From a bacterium (lineage in GTDB: Bacteria > RBG-13-66-14), in assembly GCA_035528375.1 (NCBI GenBank), contig DATKYS010000134.1, positions 1 through 6,110 of the forward strand: a stretch of 6,110 nucleotides of DNA. Reading direction: 5' to 3'. The position numbers and the translations under genes were made by a program. The notes under the pieces were generated by a model. That model was not told the DNA's origin. It saw nothing but the letters and a program-made list of their open reading frames with translations, and did not search any database. Shown one piece after another: positions 11-6,110 of this stretch (positions are counted from its first letter, which is position 1; the number at the start of each line of letters is the position of its first letter).

Positions 11-2266
11 TTACCGCGCGACGACCAGGCGCCGGTGCGCCCGACCCGAATCCGTGTCCAGCAGGACCAGATAAACCCCCGGCCTCGCGCCCGAGGCGTC
101 CCAGGAAACTTCGTGCCGACCCGCGGCCAGCTCACCCTCGAAAACGGTGCCCACCCGACGTCCGGAAAGGTCGTAAACGGAGAGCTCCGCCCGGCCCGAC
201 TCCGGCAGATCGAAGCGCACGTTCACCGCGCCCGTCGCCGGCGAGGGCCAGGGATTCGCCAGCGCGACCTCCCGCGACCGCGGACCTTCCCACTGCACCG
301 GCTCGGTCTGGTAGTACGCCTCCCCGTCATCGGAAACGACCAAAAGCAGCCAGCTCCACACGCCGGGGGACGGAATCCGCCGGTCGGTGAAGGTGAAGGT
401 TTCCGGGGCGTCGTAGACGTTCAACAGCGCCCAGTCCAGAAAATCCGTCTCGTCCCAGGCCAGGGGCGAATCGTCCGGGTCCTGGACGCGGTAGAGATAG
501 GCGGTCTCGGCCTCGCCCGCCCGGACACCGCCCGTGATGCAGACCCCGTCGGGCAGGGCGCGGGCGTCGAGCGCCACGGAGAGGCCGGACTCGGAGTGCC
601 GGCACAGGAGCCGGTCGTCGGGGTTGAAGACGACGCCCTGGAAGTCGGTCCGCTCCAGCTCGGCGGTGAACTCCTGGTTCCGCGCGTCGTTCCAGAACTC
701 CAGGCGCTCCGCGTCCCCGTTGCCGTAAACCACGTCGAACTCCAGCGGCATCTCGAACACGTAGGGCGTCTGGTTGAGCGTGTACTGCACCTGATCCACG
801 CCGATGTGAAGCACCGAGCCCTCGAGCCAGTGTCGCCAGCGGTACTCGGGGAAACCGGCCATATAGCACCACTGGTCGAAGAACCAGCCCAGGTCGCCGG
901 GATGGTGCTCGCCCGCGTAGAAATCCTCCAGGGTGTCCTCGAGGTCGGCGGTGACCGCCGTGCCGTAGCGGTGGGCGTCCAGGTAGCTGCGGATGCCGGC
1001 GAAGAAGGCTTCGTCGCCCATCAGGTTGCGCATCATGTGCACGATCCAGGCGCCCTTCAGGTACACCGTGGCGGAGAAGTCCACGTCGGGGTCCACGATG
1101 GGGTAACGCCGCCGGACGTCCTCGGCGAAGTACCACTCCCGATCCTCGAGGAGGGCCTCCCGGGCGTCGTAACAGGACGCGGGGTTCTCCGCCCACAACA
1201 CCTCGCAGTAGCTGGCGAAGCCCTCGTTGAGCCAGGTGTTGCGCCAGTCGGCGCAGGTGACCAGGTTGCCGAACCACTGGTGGGCGTTCTCGTGGGCCAC
1301 GAGCCACTCGTAGCCGGACTCGCCGTCGGTCTCCACCCCGCTCTGGGTCTGGAACTCCATCCCCTTGGACATGTCCTGCTGCCCCAGCCGCTCGAAGCCG
1401 TAGGGACCGAAGTGCTCCTCGTAGTCGTCGAACATGGCCGGGAATACGGCATAGTCGTGCAGGGCCCAGTCCAGCTCGTCGGCGTAACAGTAGAAATCCA
1501 ACAGGACCGGCTCCTCGCGCAGGACGCCGTAGGACAGGCCGTCCTCGGCGTGGACCCAAACCAGGTAGTGGGCCGAGGGGTAGACCGAATCCCAGAGCCA
1601 GGTCCGGGTGCCCGCGCCGGGGTCGTCGGTGACCTCGATCAGGACGCCGTTGCCCAGGCACTCCAGGTCCTCCGGGGCGGTGTAGCGCTCCGTGACGGTG
1701 AACTTGTCCGAGGGGTAGTTGTAGCAGGGGTAGAAGTTGTGCGTGGTGCCGGCGGACTCGTGGGAGATGCAGCGGACGCGGCCCGGCTCGATGGTGAGCG
1801 GCTTGTTATCGGGGGGGGGCCCCTCGTAGTGGACACTGACCACCGCCTCCTCACCCGCGCCGAGCGGCGGGTCCAGGCTCACGGTGAAGAAGCCGTCCTG
1901 TGTCCGGGTGAAGTCCGCCGGGACGCCGTCGTAGAGGCAGCCCGTGATGGTGAGCTCCTCCGAGAGCTGGAGGACCAGCTTCGCCTGACTCCCCTCGGAG
2001 GGGGTGATGCGCCAGTCGGCGTGGCCGGCGAGGGTCCCGACCTGGGGGAAGAACTCGAGGACGAGGTCCAGGTGCAGGAGGTCGGACCCCGAGGGCGGCG
2101 GCTCGGGCAGCGGCCCCATGTCGCTCTGCCCCTTGAGGGCCAGCTCCATGAGGCGCGGGGGCGTCGGGTCTAAAAGGAGGGGGTTGCCCAGGGGGGGTTC
2201 GAGGGGGTTCGAGGCGGGGGCGACCAGGGCGCAGAAGAGAACCAGGAGCGTTATCCGCCCGACCAT
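11..2266 (-). CDS. Secreted M1-family zinc aminopeptidase with FN3-like and C-terminal FlgD/T9SS-type sorting domain
   Basis: Predicted exported zinc metallopeptidase that would remove N-terminal residues from peptides outside the cytoplasm. Residue numbers assume 751 aa. Residues 1-19 form a signal peptide (R4, then a hydrophobic run ending near APAS). A beta-rich N-terminal domain covers about 60-235. The catalytic domain carries the exopeptidase-like motif KGMEFQ (301-306), HENAH (325-329) with zinc ligands H325 and H329, and E348 in NEGF, eighteen residues after the second His as M1 requires. Y402 in VYLKGAW fits the transition-state Tyr. Residues about 565-658 look FN3-like. Residues 668-751 (NPWPSP, VYDLSGRRV, WDASG, GVYLV) match a FlgD/type IX sorting tail. 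The ATG at 2266 is preferred over the in-frame GTG at 2272 because GAGGTGATC immediately precedes it. It is the last visible gene of the operon, 7 bases after coaD. The substrate is unknown, and the Asn usual in GAMEN is Phe here. Confidence 0.93.
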   Translation of the reverse strand: MVGRITLLVLFCALVAPASNPLEPPLGNPLLLDPTPPRLMELALKGQSDMGPLPEPPPSGSDLLHLDLVLEFFPQVGTLAGHADWRITPSEGSQAKLVLQLSEELTITGCLYDGVPADFTRTQDGFFTVSLDPPLGAGEEAVVSVHYEGPPPDNKPLTIEPGRVRCISHESAGTTHNFYPCYNYPSDKFTVTERYTAPEDLECLGNGVLIEVTDDPGAGTRTWLWDSVYPSAHYLVWVHAEDGLSYGVLREEPVLLDFYCYADELDWALHDYAVFPAMFDDYEEHFGPYGFERLGQQDMSKGMEFQTQSGVETDGESGYEWLVAHENAHQWFGNLVTCADWRNTWLNEGFASYCEVLWAENPASCYDAREALLEDREWYFAEDVRRRYPIVDPDVDFSATVYLKGAWIVHMMRNLMGDEAFFAGIRSYLDAHRYGTAVTADLEDTLEDFYAGEHHPGDLGWFFDQWCYMAGFPEYRWRHWLEGSVLHIGVDQVQYTLNQTPYVFEMPLEFDVVYGNGDAERLEFWNDARNQEFTAELERTDFQGVVFNPDDRLLCRHSESGLSVALDARALPDGVCITGGVRAGEAETAYLYRVQDPDDSPLAWDETDFLDWALLNVYDAPETFTFTDRRIPSPGVWSWLLLVVSDDGEAYYQTEPVQWEGPRSREVALANPWPSPATGAVNVRFDLPESGRAELSVYDLSGRRVGTVFEGELAAGRHEVSWDASGARPGVYLVLLDTDSGRAHRRLVVAR

Positions 2267-2275
2267 GATCACCTC
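2267..2275 (-). promoter_or_regulatory. Ribosome binding site of the M1 peptidase gene
   Basis: GAGGTGATC lies directly before ATG at 2266 and matches nine bases of the usual anti-Shine-Dalgarno tail of 16S rRNA. It overlaps the coaD stop codon (TGA at 2276-2274), so ribosomes finishing coaD are well placed to restart. It would run through the GTG at 2272, which argues against that codon as the start. Confidence 0.8.
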
Positions 2276-2793: not shown

Positions 2794-3396
2794 TCATTTT
2801 TTCACCCCCACGGCGAAGTGGGGGCACCAGACGCCGAAGATTTTATCCCGTAAAAAGAGCCGGAGCCGCACCGCCAGCGACCTCACCTGCCAGATTTTCG
2901 GCAGCGGCGGCTTCACCCGTCCCCGGGCGACGACCTCGAACCCGCACTGACCCAAGAGACGGCGGAGCGCCTCGGGCGTGTAAGGGCGGACGTGCTCCGG
3001 GTCGTCCCAGAAATCCGACCGGCGGCGGAAGAGGTACCAGGGCTCGCGGTGGCGCGGCTCGTCGGCCTGGACCACCACCGTCCCCCGGAATTTTCCCAGG
3101 ATACGCCGCAGCTCCGCGGGGGGCATGTGCTCGATCACGCAGACCATCACCAGTCCGTCGTAGCGGGCGAGGTCGGGCTCGGCGGTGTGGACGGTGAGGC
3201 CGCGCCGGCGGGCCTCGGCGGCGAGTTCCGCCACCGGCTCGTACCCCTCGGCGGGGATGCCGCGCCCGGCGGCCCAGGCGAGGAAATTTCCCGCGCCGCA
3301 GCCGTAGTCCAGCACACGCCCGCACCCCGAGAGGTACGGCCCGTAACCCCGGAAGTGGCGCGGGTCGGTCCCGCCGTAGCGTGCGTCGAGTGCCAA
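2794..3396 (-). CDS. Class I SAM-dependent methyltransferase, substrate unknown
   Basis: Predicted cytoplasmic methyltransferase of the Rossmann-fold class (Methyltransf_11/23 type), 200 aa. Motif I, VLDYGCGAGNF, is at residues 28-38. The acidic end of strand 2 is E53 in GYEP. VMVCVIEHMPP at 83-93 is the post-strand-4 block. A block with HVRPYTPEALRRLL...GF at 135-153 is typical of methyltransferases found in polysaccharide and glycolipid gene sets. A glycan or lipid substrate is therefore possible but unproven. There is no DPPY, so it is not RsmD, the rRNA methyltransferase often found beside coaD. The start is TTG at 3396-3394, with GGAG five bases upstream and a stop codon in frame farther upstream; no ATG or GTG alternative exists between. 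It is the first gene of the operon with coaD and the peptidase. Confidence 0.88.
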   Translation of the reverse strand: MALDARYGGTDPRHFRGYGPYLSGCGRVLDYGCGAGNFLAWAAGRGIPAEGYEPVAELAAEARRRGLTVHTAEPDLARYDGLVMVCVIEHMPPAELRRILGKFRGTVVVQADEPRHREPWYLFRRRSDFWDDPEHVRPYTPEALRRLLGQCGFEVVARGRVKPPLPKIWQVRSLAVRLRLFLRDKIFGVWCPHFAVGVKK

Positions 3397-3442: not shown

Positions 3443-3471
3443 AAAAAGCGGGCGACCGTGGACGGTCGCCC
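3443..3471 (-). terminator. Intrinsic terminator formed by REP unit D
   Basis: On the minus strand a perfect 10-bp stem (GGGCGACCGT and ACGGTCGCCC, two-base loop) is followed by GC and TTTTT. It stands immediately upstream of the TATAAT of the next operon and would act as a second barrier against read-through from rho. The T-run is short, so efficiency may be moderate. Confidence 0.65.
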
Positions 3472-3475
3472 CTAC
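3450..3475 (-). repeat. REP-like palindrome, unit D
   Basis: On the minus strand GTAG (3475-3472) abuts a 22-bp perfect palindrome with 10-bp arms and a two-base centre (3471-3450). The arms (GGGCGACCGT/ACGGTCGCCC) differ from the other units in the middle but stay fully complementary. The unit doubles as the stem of the terminator before the methyltransferase operon. Confidence 0.8.
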
Positions 3476-3504
3476 GGATGAGGCGTGAATGGCGCATCTT
3501 CCTC

Positions 3505-3530
3505 GTAGGGGCCGACCTTCAGGTCGGCCC
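3505..3530 (+). repeat. REP-like palindrome, unit C (inverted copy)
   Basis: On the plus strand GTAG (3505-3508) abuts GGGCCGACCT, a two-base centre and AGGTCGGCCC (3509-3530). This is the only unit in the plus orientation. It faces unit B tail to tail and the two are joined through the palindrome GCCCGCGGGC at 3527-3536, as in the paired REP elements called BIMEs. Confidence 0.8.
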
Positions 3531-3532
3531 GC

Positions 3533-3558
3533 GGGCGGGTGTGGACACCCGCCCCTAC
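3533..3558 (-). repeat. REP-like palindrome, unit B
   Basis: On the minus strand GTAG (3558-3555) abuts a perfect 10+2+10 palindrome (3554-3533) with arms GGGCGGGTGT and ACACCCGCCC. It pairs with unit C to make a 56-base element bounded by CGTAGGGG and CCCCTACG (3504-3559). No T-run follows it, so it is not predicted to terminate by itself. Confidence 0.8.
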
Positions 3559-3583
3559 GTCATCGCAATCGGGCGAATGATGT

Positions 3584-3613
3584 AAAAAAACGGGCGGACC
3601 TGAAGGTCCGCCC
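3584..3613 (-). terminator. Intrinsic terminator of rho formed by REP unit A
   Basis: On the minus strand the perfect stem GGGCGGACCT / AGGTCCGCCC with a two-base centre is followed by one G and then seven T (3590-3584). This is a textbook Rho-independent terminator, about 40 bases after the rho stop codon. It would end rho transcription without needing Rho itself. Confidence 0.88.
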
Positions 3614-3617
3614 CTAC
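3592..3617 (-). repeat. REP-like palindrome, unit A
   Basis: On the minus strand GTAG (3617-3614) abuts a perfect 10+2+10 palindrome (3613-3592). The geometry is identical to units B, C and D, while the inner arm bases differ in a compensated way. It supplies the stem of the rho terminator. Confidence 0.8.
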
Positions 3618-3652: not shown

Positions 3653-4903
3653 CTAGAGCTGCGTCATCAACTGGAGGAACTCCTCGTTGTTCTTCGTCTT
3701 CTTCATCTTGGAAAGGAGCATCTCCATGGCCTCCACGGTGTTCAGGCCGGCCAGGGCGTTGCGCAGGACCCAGAGCTTGCCGCACTCCTCCTCGGACAGA
3801 AGCAGCTCCTCCTTGCGGGTGCCGGATTTGTTGAGGTCCACGGCGGGCCAGATGCGCCGGTCGGCCAGCTTGCGGTCCAACACCAGCTCCATGTTGCCCG
3901 TGCCCTTGAACTCCTCGAAGATGACCTCGTCCATGCGGGAGCCGGTGTCAATGAGGGCGGTGGCGATGATGGTCATGGAGCCGCCCTCCTCGATGTTGCG
4001 CGCCGCGCCGAAGAAGCGCTTCGGCTTGTGCAGCGCGTTGGCGTCCACGCCGCCCGAGAGAATCTTCCCCGAGTGCGGCACCACGGCGTTGTAGGCCCGC
4101 GCCAGCCGGGTGATCGAATCCAGCAGGATCACCACGTCCCGGGAGCACTCCACCAGCCGCTTGGCCTTCTCCAGAATCATCTCGGCCACCTGGACGTGTC
4201 GCTCCGCCGGCTCGTCGAAGGTCGAGGAGACCACCTCGCCCCGGACCGAGCGCTGCATGTCGGTGACCTCCTCGGGCCGCTCGTCAATCAGGAGCACGAT
4301 CAGGTACACGTCGGGGTGGTTGGTGGTGACGGAGTTGGCGATTTTCTGCAGGATCATCGTCTTCCCGGCGCGGGGAGGCGAGACGATGAGCCCCCGCTGG
4401 CCCATCCCCACCGGGCACAACAGGTTGATCACCCGCATCGAGAGGTCCTCGTCCGGGGTCTCCAGGTCGAACTTCTCATCGGGGTAGAGCGGGGTGAGCT
4501 CCTCGAAGACGACCTTCTCCAGGGCGGTTTCCGGGCTCTCGAAGTTGACCGCCTCGACGCGTATCAGGGCGAAGTAGCGCTCGGAGTCCTTGGGCGGCCG
4601 CACCTGGCCCGTGACGATGTCCCCCTTGCGCAGGCCGAAGCGCTTTATCTGGCTCGGGGAAACGTAGATGTCGTCGGGGCCGGGGAGGTAGTTGTAGTCC
4701 GCCGACCGCAGGAAGCCGAAGCCCTCGGGGAGGATTTCCAGGACGCCGTCGGCCAGGACGAAGCCGTCCCCCTCGGTCTTGGCGCCCAGAATCTGGAAGA
4801 TGAGCTCCTGCTTGCGCAGGCCGCTGGCGCCGGTGACGCCCAGCTCCTTGGCCAGTTTCTGCAGTTCGACGACCTTCTTGTTCTTCAGCTCGGCGAGCTC
4901 CAT
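3653..4903 (-). CDS. rho: Transcription termination factor Rho
   Basis: Hexameric RNA-dependent ATPase/helicase that binds C-rich nascent RNA and releases RNA polymerase. It is 416 aa, close to the 419 of the E. coli protein, with no large N-terminal insertion. Residues 1-40 are the Rho_N helical domain. Residues about 50-120 are the cold-shock RNA-binding domain, with GFGFLR (61-66) and DDIYVS (77-82). The ATPase domain shows Walker A SPPRAGKT (175-182), catalytic E208 in [10 protein letters not shown], Walker B D262 in [10 protein letters not shown]266, the Q-loop [16 protein letters not shown] (276-291) and the arginine finger R363 in SGTRKEE. The ATG at 4903 is chosen because TAGAGG stands seven bases upstream and the family begins MELAELKN. 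An in-frame start at 4972 would add 23 Arg/Pro-rich residues unlike any Rho. It has its own promoter, a C-rich leader and an intrinsic terminator, so it is probably monocistronic. Confidence 0.99.
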
Positions 4904-5041
4904 GGGAACACCTCTAAAGTGACGGCGCGGCGATACACGCCGGCGGCGGAACGGGGGAACGGGTTGGCGCAACCTCGGTCAGGAAAAAATCTGTGGGTGG
5001 GTGTTTTTTTGTCGGGGAGCTGTGGATGGGCGTTGAAGTGC
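4904..5041 (-). promoter_or_regulatory. C-rich, rut-like leader of rho
   Basis: Predicted untranslated leader of about 138 nt. Its first part is strikingly C-rich and G-poor: the transcript complementary to 4981-5047 (including a few bases around the presumed start point) has 30 C and 5 G in 67. Such C-over-G bias is the known hallmark of Rho utilization sites, and rho is autoregulated through its leader in E. coli. Farther down are two small perfect stems, GGTTG-3-CAACC (4962-4974) and CGGCG-5-CGCCG (4928-4942). The Shine-Dalgarno sequence GAGG is at 4914-4911. Autogenous attenuation is an inference from composition; no small leader ORF stands out. Confidence 0.6.
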
Positions 5042-5089: not shown

Positions 5090-5542
5090 CTAGAAAAGAG
5101 TAAACCAATCGAAACCTAACTCAATGTAAACACGCTGACGGAATAAATTGTTTGGATCTATAATAGTATCCGTTGATTCATCATCTTCATCATATTTAAA
5201 GTCAAGTTCTATCCCAATACCACTGAATATTAATTGAGCTTTTAAATCTATAGCTATATTGTTATTTGGATCGGCAAATACAAGTAATGTAGGTATCGGA
5301 GATGCTTTACAATCTTGTAATGCATAAGATAATTTCTGGAAAGTTGTCCCGCCGGTTTTTTGGAATTTTGCCTCAACACCTAAATATTTATTTGTATCGC
5401 TATGTTTAAGGATTAAATCTAAATGTCTCGGTTTACCTACAAATCTATAACCAACTGGTTTTTCTTCTTTTATATCAATGGGTAAATTCCAAGATTCAAT
5501 GTATGCCCTTATTGCTTTTTTAAATCTATCGCCGGTAGCCAT
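5090..5542 (-). CDS. Probable type II restriction endonuclease, PD-(D/E)xK fold
   Basis: A 150-aa cytoplasmic protein, probably the DNA-cutting partner of the methyltransferase gene just upstream. The visible signature is D42 in RHLDLIL followed by E57 and K59 in GVEAKF, the D-x(14)-E-x-K arrangement of PD-(D/E)xK nucleases. It is followed by TGGTTFQKLSYAL (63-75), a block seen in small enzymes of this superfamily. An Asp/Glu-rich stretch lies at 117-123. There is no signal peptide or membrane segment. The ATG at 5542 has AAGG seven bases upstream, overlapping the methyltransferase stop, so the two genes look co-translated. The DNA is AT-rich, unlike rho, which fits horizontal acquisition. 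I do not recognise a specific restriction enzyme family. If the methyltransferase modifies GATC this enzyme would cut there, but that is inferred from the pairing only. Confidence 0.8.
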   Translation of the reverse strand: MATGDRFKKAIRAYIESWNLPIDIKEEKPVGYRFVGKPRHLDLILKHSDTNKYLGVEAKFQKTGGTTFQKLSYALQDCKASPIPTLLVFADPNNNIAIDLKAQLIFSGIGIELDFKYDEDDESTDTIIDPNNLFRQRVYIELGFDWFTLF

Positions 5543-5554
5543 AGAAAAACCTTT

Positions 5555-6110
5555 CTAGTAGTTAGTTACAATAAGTTCTGTTGCTCCCGTTCGCTTATCA
5601 CCCTTACAATTTATTGCTCTATTTGCCTTGATTACAGTAATGCTGTAATCAGAGTATAAATCATTAATTAAATCTGTATTTGAATTCGATAACATAACAA
5701 AACAACCTCGATTGTCTAAACACCTAAAATCCTCTGCCAGCCTCTGTTGTTCGTACTCATCAAACCCACTGCCATTGTATTTCGTAAAGTGAGCTGTGTC
5801 GCTTATTGGTTGATAAGGCGGATCAAAATAGATAAAATCCCCAGACTTCGTATCTTCTATAGCCCGCGAAAAATCAGCAGATCTTATTATTATTTCAGCA
5901 CTATTCAAGTATTCTGATACAGACAGAAGATTATCTTCATCTAAAATCGTGGGGGTCTTGTATGAACCAAATGGTGCGTTAAATTTACCTTTCCTATTTA
6001 CTCGCCAAAGACCATTGTAGCAAGTTTTATTTAGAAAAATAAACCTAGAAGCCCTTTCTACCTTGCTTAATTCATTAGGGTCAATTGAGCGCACATTATA
6101 GAAATATTTT
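5555..6110 (-). CDS. Dam-family adenine-N6 DNA methyltransferase, 5' end beyond the window
   Basis: Transfers a methyl group from SAM to adenine N6 in DNA; as part of a restriction-modification pair it would protect host sites. About 184 codons are visible. The frame stays open to the window edge with family-like residues (KYFYNVRS), so the in-frame GTG at 6094 is internal and the SAM-binding FxGxG motif lies outside. Visible blocks are RFIFLNKTCYNGLWRVN and the following KFNAPFGSYK (the Dam target-recognition region), DPPY at 5824-5813 (motif IV, catalytic), then FTKYNGSGF and a C-terminal RAINCKG block. The Arg in GLWR corresponds to R124 of E. coli Dam, which contacts the GATC site. This favours GATC, but other Dam-family members such as M.EcoRV differ. 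The order recognition region then DPPY fits the alpha class. It is AT-rich, followed 12 bases later by the nuclease gene. Confidence 0.92.
   Translation of the reverse strand, partial: KYFYNVRSIDPNELSKVERASRFIFLNKTCYNGLWRVNRKGKFNAPFGSYKTPTILDEDNLLSVSEYLNSAEIIIRSADFSRAIEDTKSGDFIYFDPPYQPISDTAHFTKYNGSGFDEYEQQRLAEDFRCLDNRGCFVMLSNSNTDLINDLYSDYSITVIKANRAINCKGDKRTGATELIVTNY

What the first reader, a model, noticed from the sequence alone, without database searches (positions are those of the whole stretch)
3450..3617. Four REP-type palindromes with exact shared geometry and compensated arms
All four units consist of GTAG directly abutting a 22-bp perfect palindrome (10-bp arms, two-base centre). The outer arm bases are constant (GGGC/GCCC) while the inner ones differ between units and are always matched on the other arm. 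A GTAG-type tetranucleotide beside a palindrome is the described hallmark of REP elements mobilised by REP-associated tyrosine transposases (RAYTs). Compensated variation implies selection for, or copying of, a folded structure. No RAYT gene is in the window, and the family may be undescribed in this lineage.
Basis: partly seen in the sequence, partly recalled or inferred. Interest (0 to 1): 0.6.

Follow-up and report, generated by a model that had tools for sequence, protein, structure and literature searches.

The report
GTAG-tagged REP palindromes with RAYT transposase
The four hairpin sequences are part of a very common repeat family of this bacterium that is almost certainly spread by a dedicated transposase; this is a known kind of element in a little-studied lineage, and several hairpin types sit side by side and are never paired with their own kind.

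Summary
Four 26-bp units (GTAG plus a perfect 10+2+10 palindrome) lie at 3450-3475(-), 3505-3530(+), 3533-3558(-) and 3592-3617(-), between rho and a methyltransferase gene. The genome holds 370 copies of GTAGGGGC-N14-GCCC (6 in the reversed control), plus 114 of a sister type. In sampled contigs 215 of 224 lie outside called genes. The genome has one RAYT gene (NF047646, above cut-off, HUH and Tyr motifs) bracketed by such elements. Refinements: the 'compensated arms' are not free variation. The window shows four of a few discrete stem types, each in many copies. Constant parts are GTAG, the outer GG/CC, the body length and a strand-polarised TYYA loop. Related RAYT clades are bracketed by different stem types of the same geometry. 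Inverted neighbours are never of the same type (0 of 153 in three genomes) and fall into two classes, as E. coli Y and Z units do. A sister genus has rho and the methyltransferase gene overlapping, with no array. Two units carry T-runs and look like intrinsic terminators. GTAG REPs, RAYT bracketing, compensatory stems and heterodimer preference are published (PMC3733652, PMC8266576): a new member of a known kind.

The parts
3450..3475 (-). REP unit type C: GTAG-GGGCGACCGT-CC-ACGGTCGCCC, followed on its strand by GCTTTTTGG
   Evidence: terminator-like
3505..3530 (+). REP unit type B: GTAG-GGGCCGACCT-TC-AGGTCGGCCC; tail-to-tail with type C (29-bp spacer), head-to-head with type A (2-bp spacer)
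3533..3558 (-). REP unit type A: GTAG-GGGCGGGTGT-CC-ACACCCGCCC; commonest single stem of the GGGC units in the genome (121 with up to 1 mismatch)
3592..3617 (-). REP unit type D: GTAG-GGGCGGACCT-TC-AGGTCCGCCC, identical to the unit just upstream of the RAYT gene; followed by GTTTTTTT, about 35 bp after the rho stop codon
3397..3652 (.). 256-bp intergenic gap that holds the array; in a sister genus the rho stop overlaps the methyltransferase start (ATGA), with no gap
3653..4906 (-). rho transcription termination factor, upstream neighbour on the minus strand
   Evidence: PF07497, PF00006, PF07498
2794..3396 (-). methyltransferase gene, downstream neighbour on the minus strand
   Evidence: PF13489

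Best explanation
The four units are GTAG-type REP elements in a BIME-like array. Each is a non-autonomous DNA hairpin recognised on the GTAG strand by a REP-associated tyrosine (HUH) transposase. Proposed mechanism: the enzyme binds the single-stranded hairpin through GTAG, the perfect stem of fixed length and the TYYA loop, cuts beside it and moves or copies units in trans, mostly into intergenic DNA. Shown here: copy number, intergenic placement, fixed geometry, discrete stem types, strand-polarised loop, a bracketed RAYT gene, correspondence between RAYT clade and stem type in related genomes, and pairing of two classes of unit in inverted pairs. Inferred: that this RAYT acts on these units, that types A, C and g are relics or trans-substrates of RAYTs now seen only in congeners, and that T-tailed units such as the one after rho work as intrinsic terminators.
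For: 370 vs 6 (reversed) copies. 88 of 283 10-2-10 near-palindromes follow GTAG. 215/224 outside called genes. RAYT 109 bits vs cut-off 80 in NF047646; it matches E. coli TnpA-REP 4er8, with HLH and the Tyr of YIWENP in line with the HMH and Tyr115 of 4er8. The RAYT has type D 12 bp upstream and an inverted B-like unit downstream. Most related RAYTs have GTAG or GTGG plus a 20-22-nt palindrome close to one or both ends, tags outward, with different stems. RAYT clades match stem types: own clade with ACCTTCAGGT or related stems, clade II with GGCGGGG, G010a with A and C. Pair 10 at the loop is T-A in 284/288 perfect units and the loop is TYYA; the matching T and A positions were critical in the REP-Mb SELEX (PMC8266576). 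Inverted neighbours never same-type: 0 of 153 in three genomes. No array in the sister genus, where the genes overlap.
Against: Mobility itself is not seen: no matched filled/empty site between strains was found, and the sister-genus comparison spans 81% Rho identity. Only one RAYT was found for at least six stem types. The assembly is in 144 contigs and some end in REPs, so RAYTs could be missing and pair statistics could be biased.
Confidence: 0.92

Rival explanations
1. They are ordinary intrinsic terminators, kept by selection for RNA hairpins, with no transposase involved.
For: Two of the four units are followed by T-runs on the tag strand, and the one after rho looks like a strong terminator. 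T-tailed units lie after a gene 3' end more often (33/46) than others (62/117), Fisher P 0.034.
Against: About 70% of units lack a T-run (55 of 193 have one). The GTAG tag, exact length, near-identical copies in hundreds, tight inverted pairs and presence around RAYT genes are not explained by termination. G-T and A-C mismatches are equally frequent (17 vs 15), so there is no sign of RNA pairing on the tag strand.
Confidence: 0.05
2. Terminator use is a secondary, domesticated role for a subset of REPs that keep or acquire a T-run (compatible with the best explanation).
For: as above; fits the published view that many REPs are transcribed (PMC3733652).
Against: The association with gene ends is modest and rests on a crude gene caller.
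Confidence: 0.5
3. Absence of same-type inverted neighbours reflects only loss of long perfect palindromes (SbcCD-type cleavage) or assembly failure, not class-specific pairing.
For: Published suggestion for heterodimer excess (PMC3733652). Identical types do occur around RAYT genes about 500 bp apart (L140, L149). Some contigs end at REPs.
Against: Beyond avoiding self, 101 of 111 tight pairs join {B,C,h} with {A,D,E,F,g}; shuffles that forbid self pairs reach at most 87.
Confidence: 0.3
4. They are ends or remnants of a conventional insertion sequence or a CRISPR-like array.
For: Short repeated units at one site.
Against: Units alternate in strand, have no uniform spacers, stand in hundreds of mostly intergenic places, and the only associated transposase found is a RAYT.
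Confidence: 0.01

Closest known systems
GTAG REP superfamily (Di Nocera et al. 2013, PMC3733652)
   Same: GTAG tag, short stem with small loop, complementary stem variants, HH/TT dimers often of unlike units, RAYT genes bracketed by the repeats
   Different: The published survey names Proteobacteria, Cyanobacteria, Chloroflexi and PVC for GTAG repeats; here a small phylum with 14 genomes held, with at least six stem types of identical geometry in one genome
E. coli BIMEs with Y, Z1, Z2 REPs and TnpA-REP
   Same: Two classes of unit combined in inverted pairs; HUH transposase with equivalent motifs
   Different: Perfect palindromes without the E. coli bulge; more types per class; 2-bp head-to-head spacer
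Group 3 TnpA-REP systems (S. maltophilia, Marinomonas REP-Mb; PMC8266576)
   Same: Perfect palindromes; loop T..A positions conserved as in the REP-Mb SELEX
   Different: Longer stem (10 bp including the T-A pair) directly abutting GTAG; TCCA as well as TTTA/TTCA loops
REPINs of Pseudomonas (PMC3116915)
   Same: Inverted REP pairs spread by a RAYT
   Different: Those pairs are of like units (from my own knowledge); here the members of close inverted pairs are always unlike

Membership tests
GTAG REP element | GTAG (or near variant) directly beside a short palindrome | tested here: met
GTAG REP element | High copy number in the genome | tested here: met
   370 of the GTAGGGGC type and 114 of the GGCGGGG type
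GTAG REP element | Extragenic location | tested here: met
   215/224 outside called genes, crude caller
GTAG REP element | Inverted pairs and clusters (BIME-like) | tested here: met
REP-associated tyrosine transposase (RAYT, NF047646) | Family model above curated cut-off | tested here: met
   109.4 bits vs 80
REP-associated tyrosine transposase (RAYT, NF047646) | HUH motif and catalytic tyrosine | tested here: met
   HLH at 71, Tyr129 aligned with Tyr115 of 4er8
REP-associated tyrosine transposase (RAYT, NF047646) | Gene bracketed by inverted REPs | tested here: met
REP-associated tyrosine transposase (RAYT, NF047646) | Binds and cuts single-stranded REP | not testable with these tools
   needs purified protein
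REPIN | Inverted pair of like REPs as the mobile unit | tested here: not met
   0 of 153 close inverted pairs are of the same type
Intrinsic terminator | GC-rich hairpin followed by a T-run | tested here: inconclusive
   two of four units; 55 of 193 in the sample

The most novel reading that the evidence does not exclude
In this lineage the RAYTs read mainly shape (GTAG, a 22-nt hairpin body, TYYA loop), so that many stem sequences coexist as substrates, and the mobile unit is an obligate pair of one class-1 and one class-2 REP that stand for the two ends of an IS200-like element.
Probability: 0.25. Interest if true: 0.5.

Novelty: new member of a known kind. Interest (0 to 1): 0.33.

Why it matters
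It extends the REP-RAYT association, with a rich set of stem types, to a small and little-studied phylum. Because RAYT clades and stem types can be matched across related genomes, it offers a natural test of what RAYTs recognise and of why inverted REP pairs are made of unlike units, which the 2013 survey said has no obvious explanation.

Tried and rejected
Continuous compensatory drift: rejected, since only 20 distinct perfect bodies occur in 288 units. RNA-level selection judged by G-U excess: no signal, 17 G-T vs 15 A-C. Spread of this element in 50 named genomes of other phyla and classes: 0-5 matches each, mostly at control level, so it is largely a lineage-specific expansion. Identification of the phylum by name: not possible with unnamed handles; the best Rho match in named genomes is 73% (Zixibacteria). 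First pass over RAYT flanks ignored strand and was redone. rho was not found in the three congeneric assemblies, so no closer empty site could be read.

Full report
Observation. The four units are exactly as described, with three of the four tagged on the minus strand. On their own strands they read GTAG + GGGCGACCGT-CC-ACGGTCGCCC (3450-3475), GGGCCGACCT-TC-AGGTCGGCCC (3505-3530, plus strand), GGGCGGGTGT-CC-ACACCCGCCC (3533-3558) and GGGCGGACCT-TC-AGGTCCGCCC (3592-3617). They lie in a 256-bp gap between rho (3653-4906) and a methyltransferase gene (2794-3396), both on the minus strand.

Copy number and place. The genome (2.63 Mb, 144 contigs) has 518 CGTAGGGGC against 104 for the reversed pattern, 370 GTAGGGGC-N14-GCCC against 6, and 114 of a sister type GTAGGGCGGGG... 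against 0. In 785 kb of sampled contigs 215 of 224 units lie outside called genes, where about 18% of the sequence is non-coding (crude gene caller). In 484 kb not chosen for hits, GTAG is by far the commonest tetranucleotide beside a 10-2-10 near-palindrome.

Discrete types. The perfect GGGC units of this genome fall into six stems: A GGGCGGGTGT, B GGGCCGACCT, C GGGCGACCGT, D GGGCGGACCT, E GGGCGGGTCT, and a rare F. The window holds C, B, A and D. Across three congeneric genomes 288 perfect units have 20 bodies. Pairs 1-2 do not vary (the search required GTAGGG, so the first two bases were fixed beforehand), pairs 3-9 vary with both sides changed, and pair 10 is T-A in 284 of 288. The loop is TYYA on the GTAG strand (TCCA, TTTA, TTCA, TCTA), so the centre is strand-polarised although the arms are symmetric. 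In the Marinomonas system SELEX found T12, T13 and A15 of the loop critical and a mismatch-free stem important (PMC8266576).

RAYT. One Y1_Tnp gene was found in the genome. It passes the NCBIfam REP_Tyr_transpos cut-off. Its only solved relative by sequence is E. coli TnpA-REP (4er8), with HLH at 71 and Tyr129 aligned to Tyr115. Twelve bases upstream of its start codon is a unit identical to the window's type D; downstream are an inverted, elongated B-like unit and a D-like unit. In the 14 genomes of the phylum, 11 match the RAYT model. Many of these genes have GTAG or GTGG plus a 22-nt (sometimes 20-nt) palindrome close to one or both ends, tags outward, even where the stem sequence is unrelated (e.g. 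CGTCAGTTGTTACCAACTGACG). The RAYT tree separates the own-genome gene plus three from another family, a congener group bracketed by GGCGGGG units, a congener gene (G010a) bracketed by A and C, and longer relatives, some of them near symmetric GTAG...CTAC palindromes. Type counts per genome agree in part: A and C occur only in the own genus and one sister genus, and B also in the family that carries the other own-clade RAYTs. That A, C and g are kept here without their RAYT is an inference, since RAYTs may be hidden in assembly gaps.

Pairs. Head-to-head units are most often 2 bp apart and tail-to-tail units 20-30 bp apart, in all three genomes. No inverted neighbours within 130 bp are of the same type (0 of 153; about 24 expected, summed over the separate shuffles). 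Beyond that, tight pairs join {B, C, h} with {A, D, E, F, g} in 101 of 111 cases; shuffles that forbid self pairs reach at most 87 of 111. The partition was chosen to fit, but the shuffles were optimised the same way. The published survey reports heterodimer preference and offers SbcCD clearance of long palindromes as a reason. The two-class pattern suggests a Y/Z arrangement on top of it. Assembly bias against long palindromes is a real caveat, and copies of one composite are not independent.

Site history and role. In a sister genus (G013, Rho 81% identical) rho ends in ATGA overlapping the methyltransferase start; in another (G012) rho is followed directly by coaD. The array is therefore an addition in this lineage or a loss in the other; addition is more likely given its make-up. 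The unit next to rho has a seven-T tail and folds well (z -3.7). T-tailed units lie after gene ends somewhat more often than others (P 0.034). Termination is a plausible secondary role.

Verdict. The parts are all known: GTAG REP superfamily, RAYT bracketing, compensatory stem variants and unlike pairs. The gain is a clear, many-typed case in a little-studied phylum, with RAYT clade to stem type correspondences that can be tested.

Noticed in passing
window 5090-6110: AT-rich stretch with a PD-(D/E)XK nuclease-like gene (PF20472) and a D12 adenine methyltransferase gene (PF02086) beside a high-GC operon; looks like an acquired restriction-modification pair.
   Followed up: partly
L033 2285-2310 and similar T-tailed units in L034, L036, L037, L047: Many T-tailed REPs continue into a second conserved repeat, TTTTTTATAAGGYRGCCCTCACCC followed by a CCCTCTCCC/GGGAGAGGG hairpin, so the arrays are mosaics of at least two repeat families.
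   Followed up: partly
L132 1917-1954; also in L046, L047, L149: An elongated B-type unit, GGGCCGACCGACGGCGCGCCGTTCAGGTCGGCCC (or TTTAGG), in which the hairpin tip is replaced by a longer palindromic insert; recurrent.
   Followed up: no
L158, L160, L136, L141, L153: A longer (about 180-210 aa) Y1_Tnp clade lies near fully symmetric palindromes GTAGGGGCG...CGCCCCTAC (GTAG at both ends, no unpaired centre) in some of these loci, a second geometry of tagged palindrome in the phylum.
   Followed up: partly
window 11-2272: M1 peptidase with a Por secretion C-terminal sorting domain (PF18962), a sign of type IX-like secretion.
   Followed up: no
G000 contigs C17, C28, C29, C101: Several contigs begin within or right at a REP unit, so REPs probably break the assembly and RAYT or REP counts are lower bounds.
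   Followed up: no
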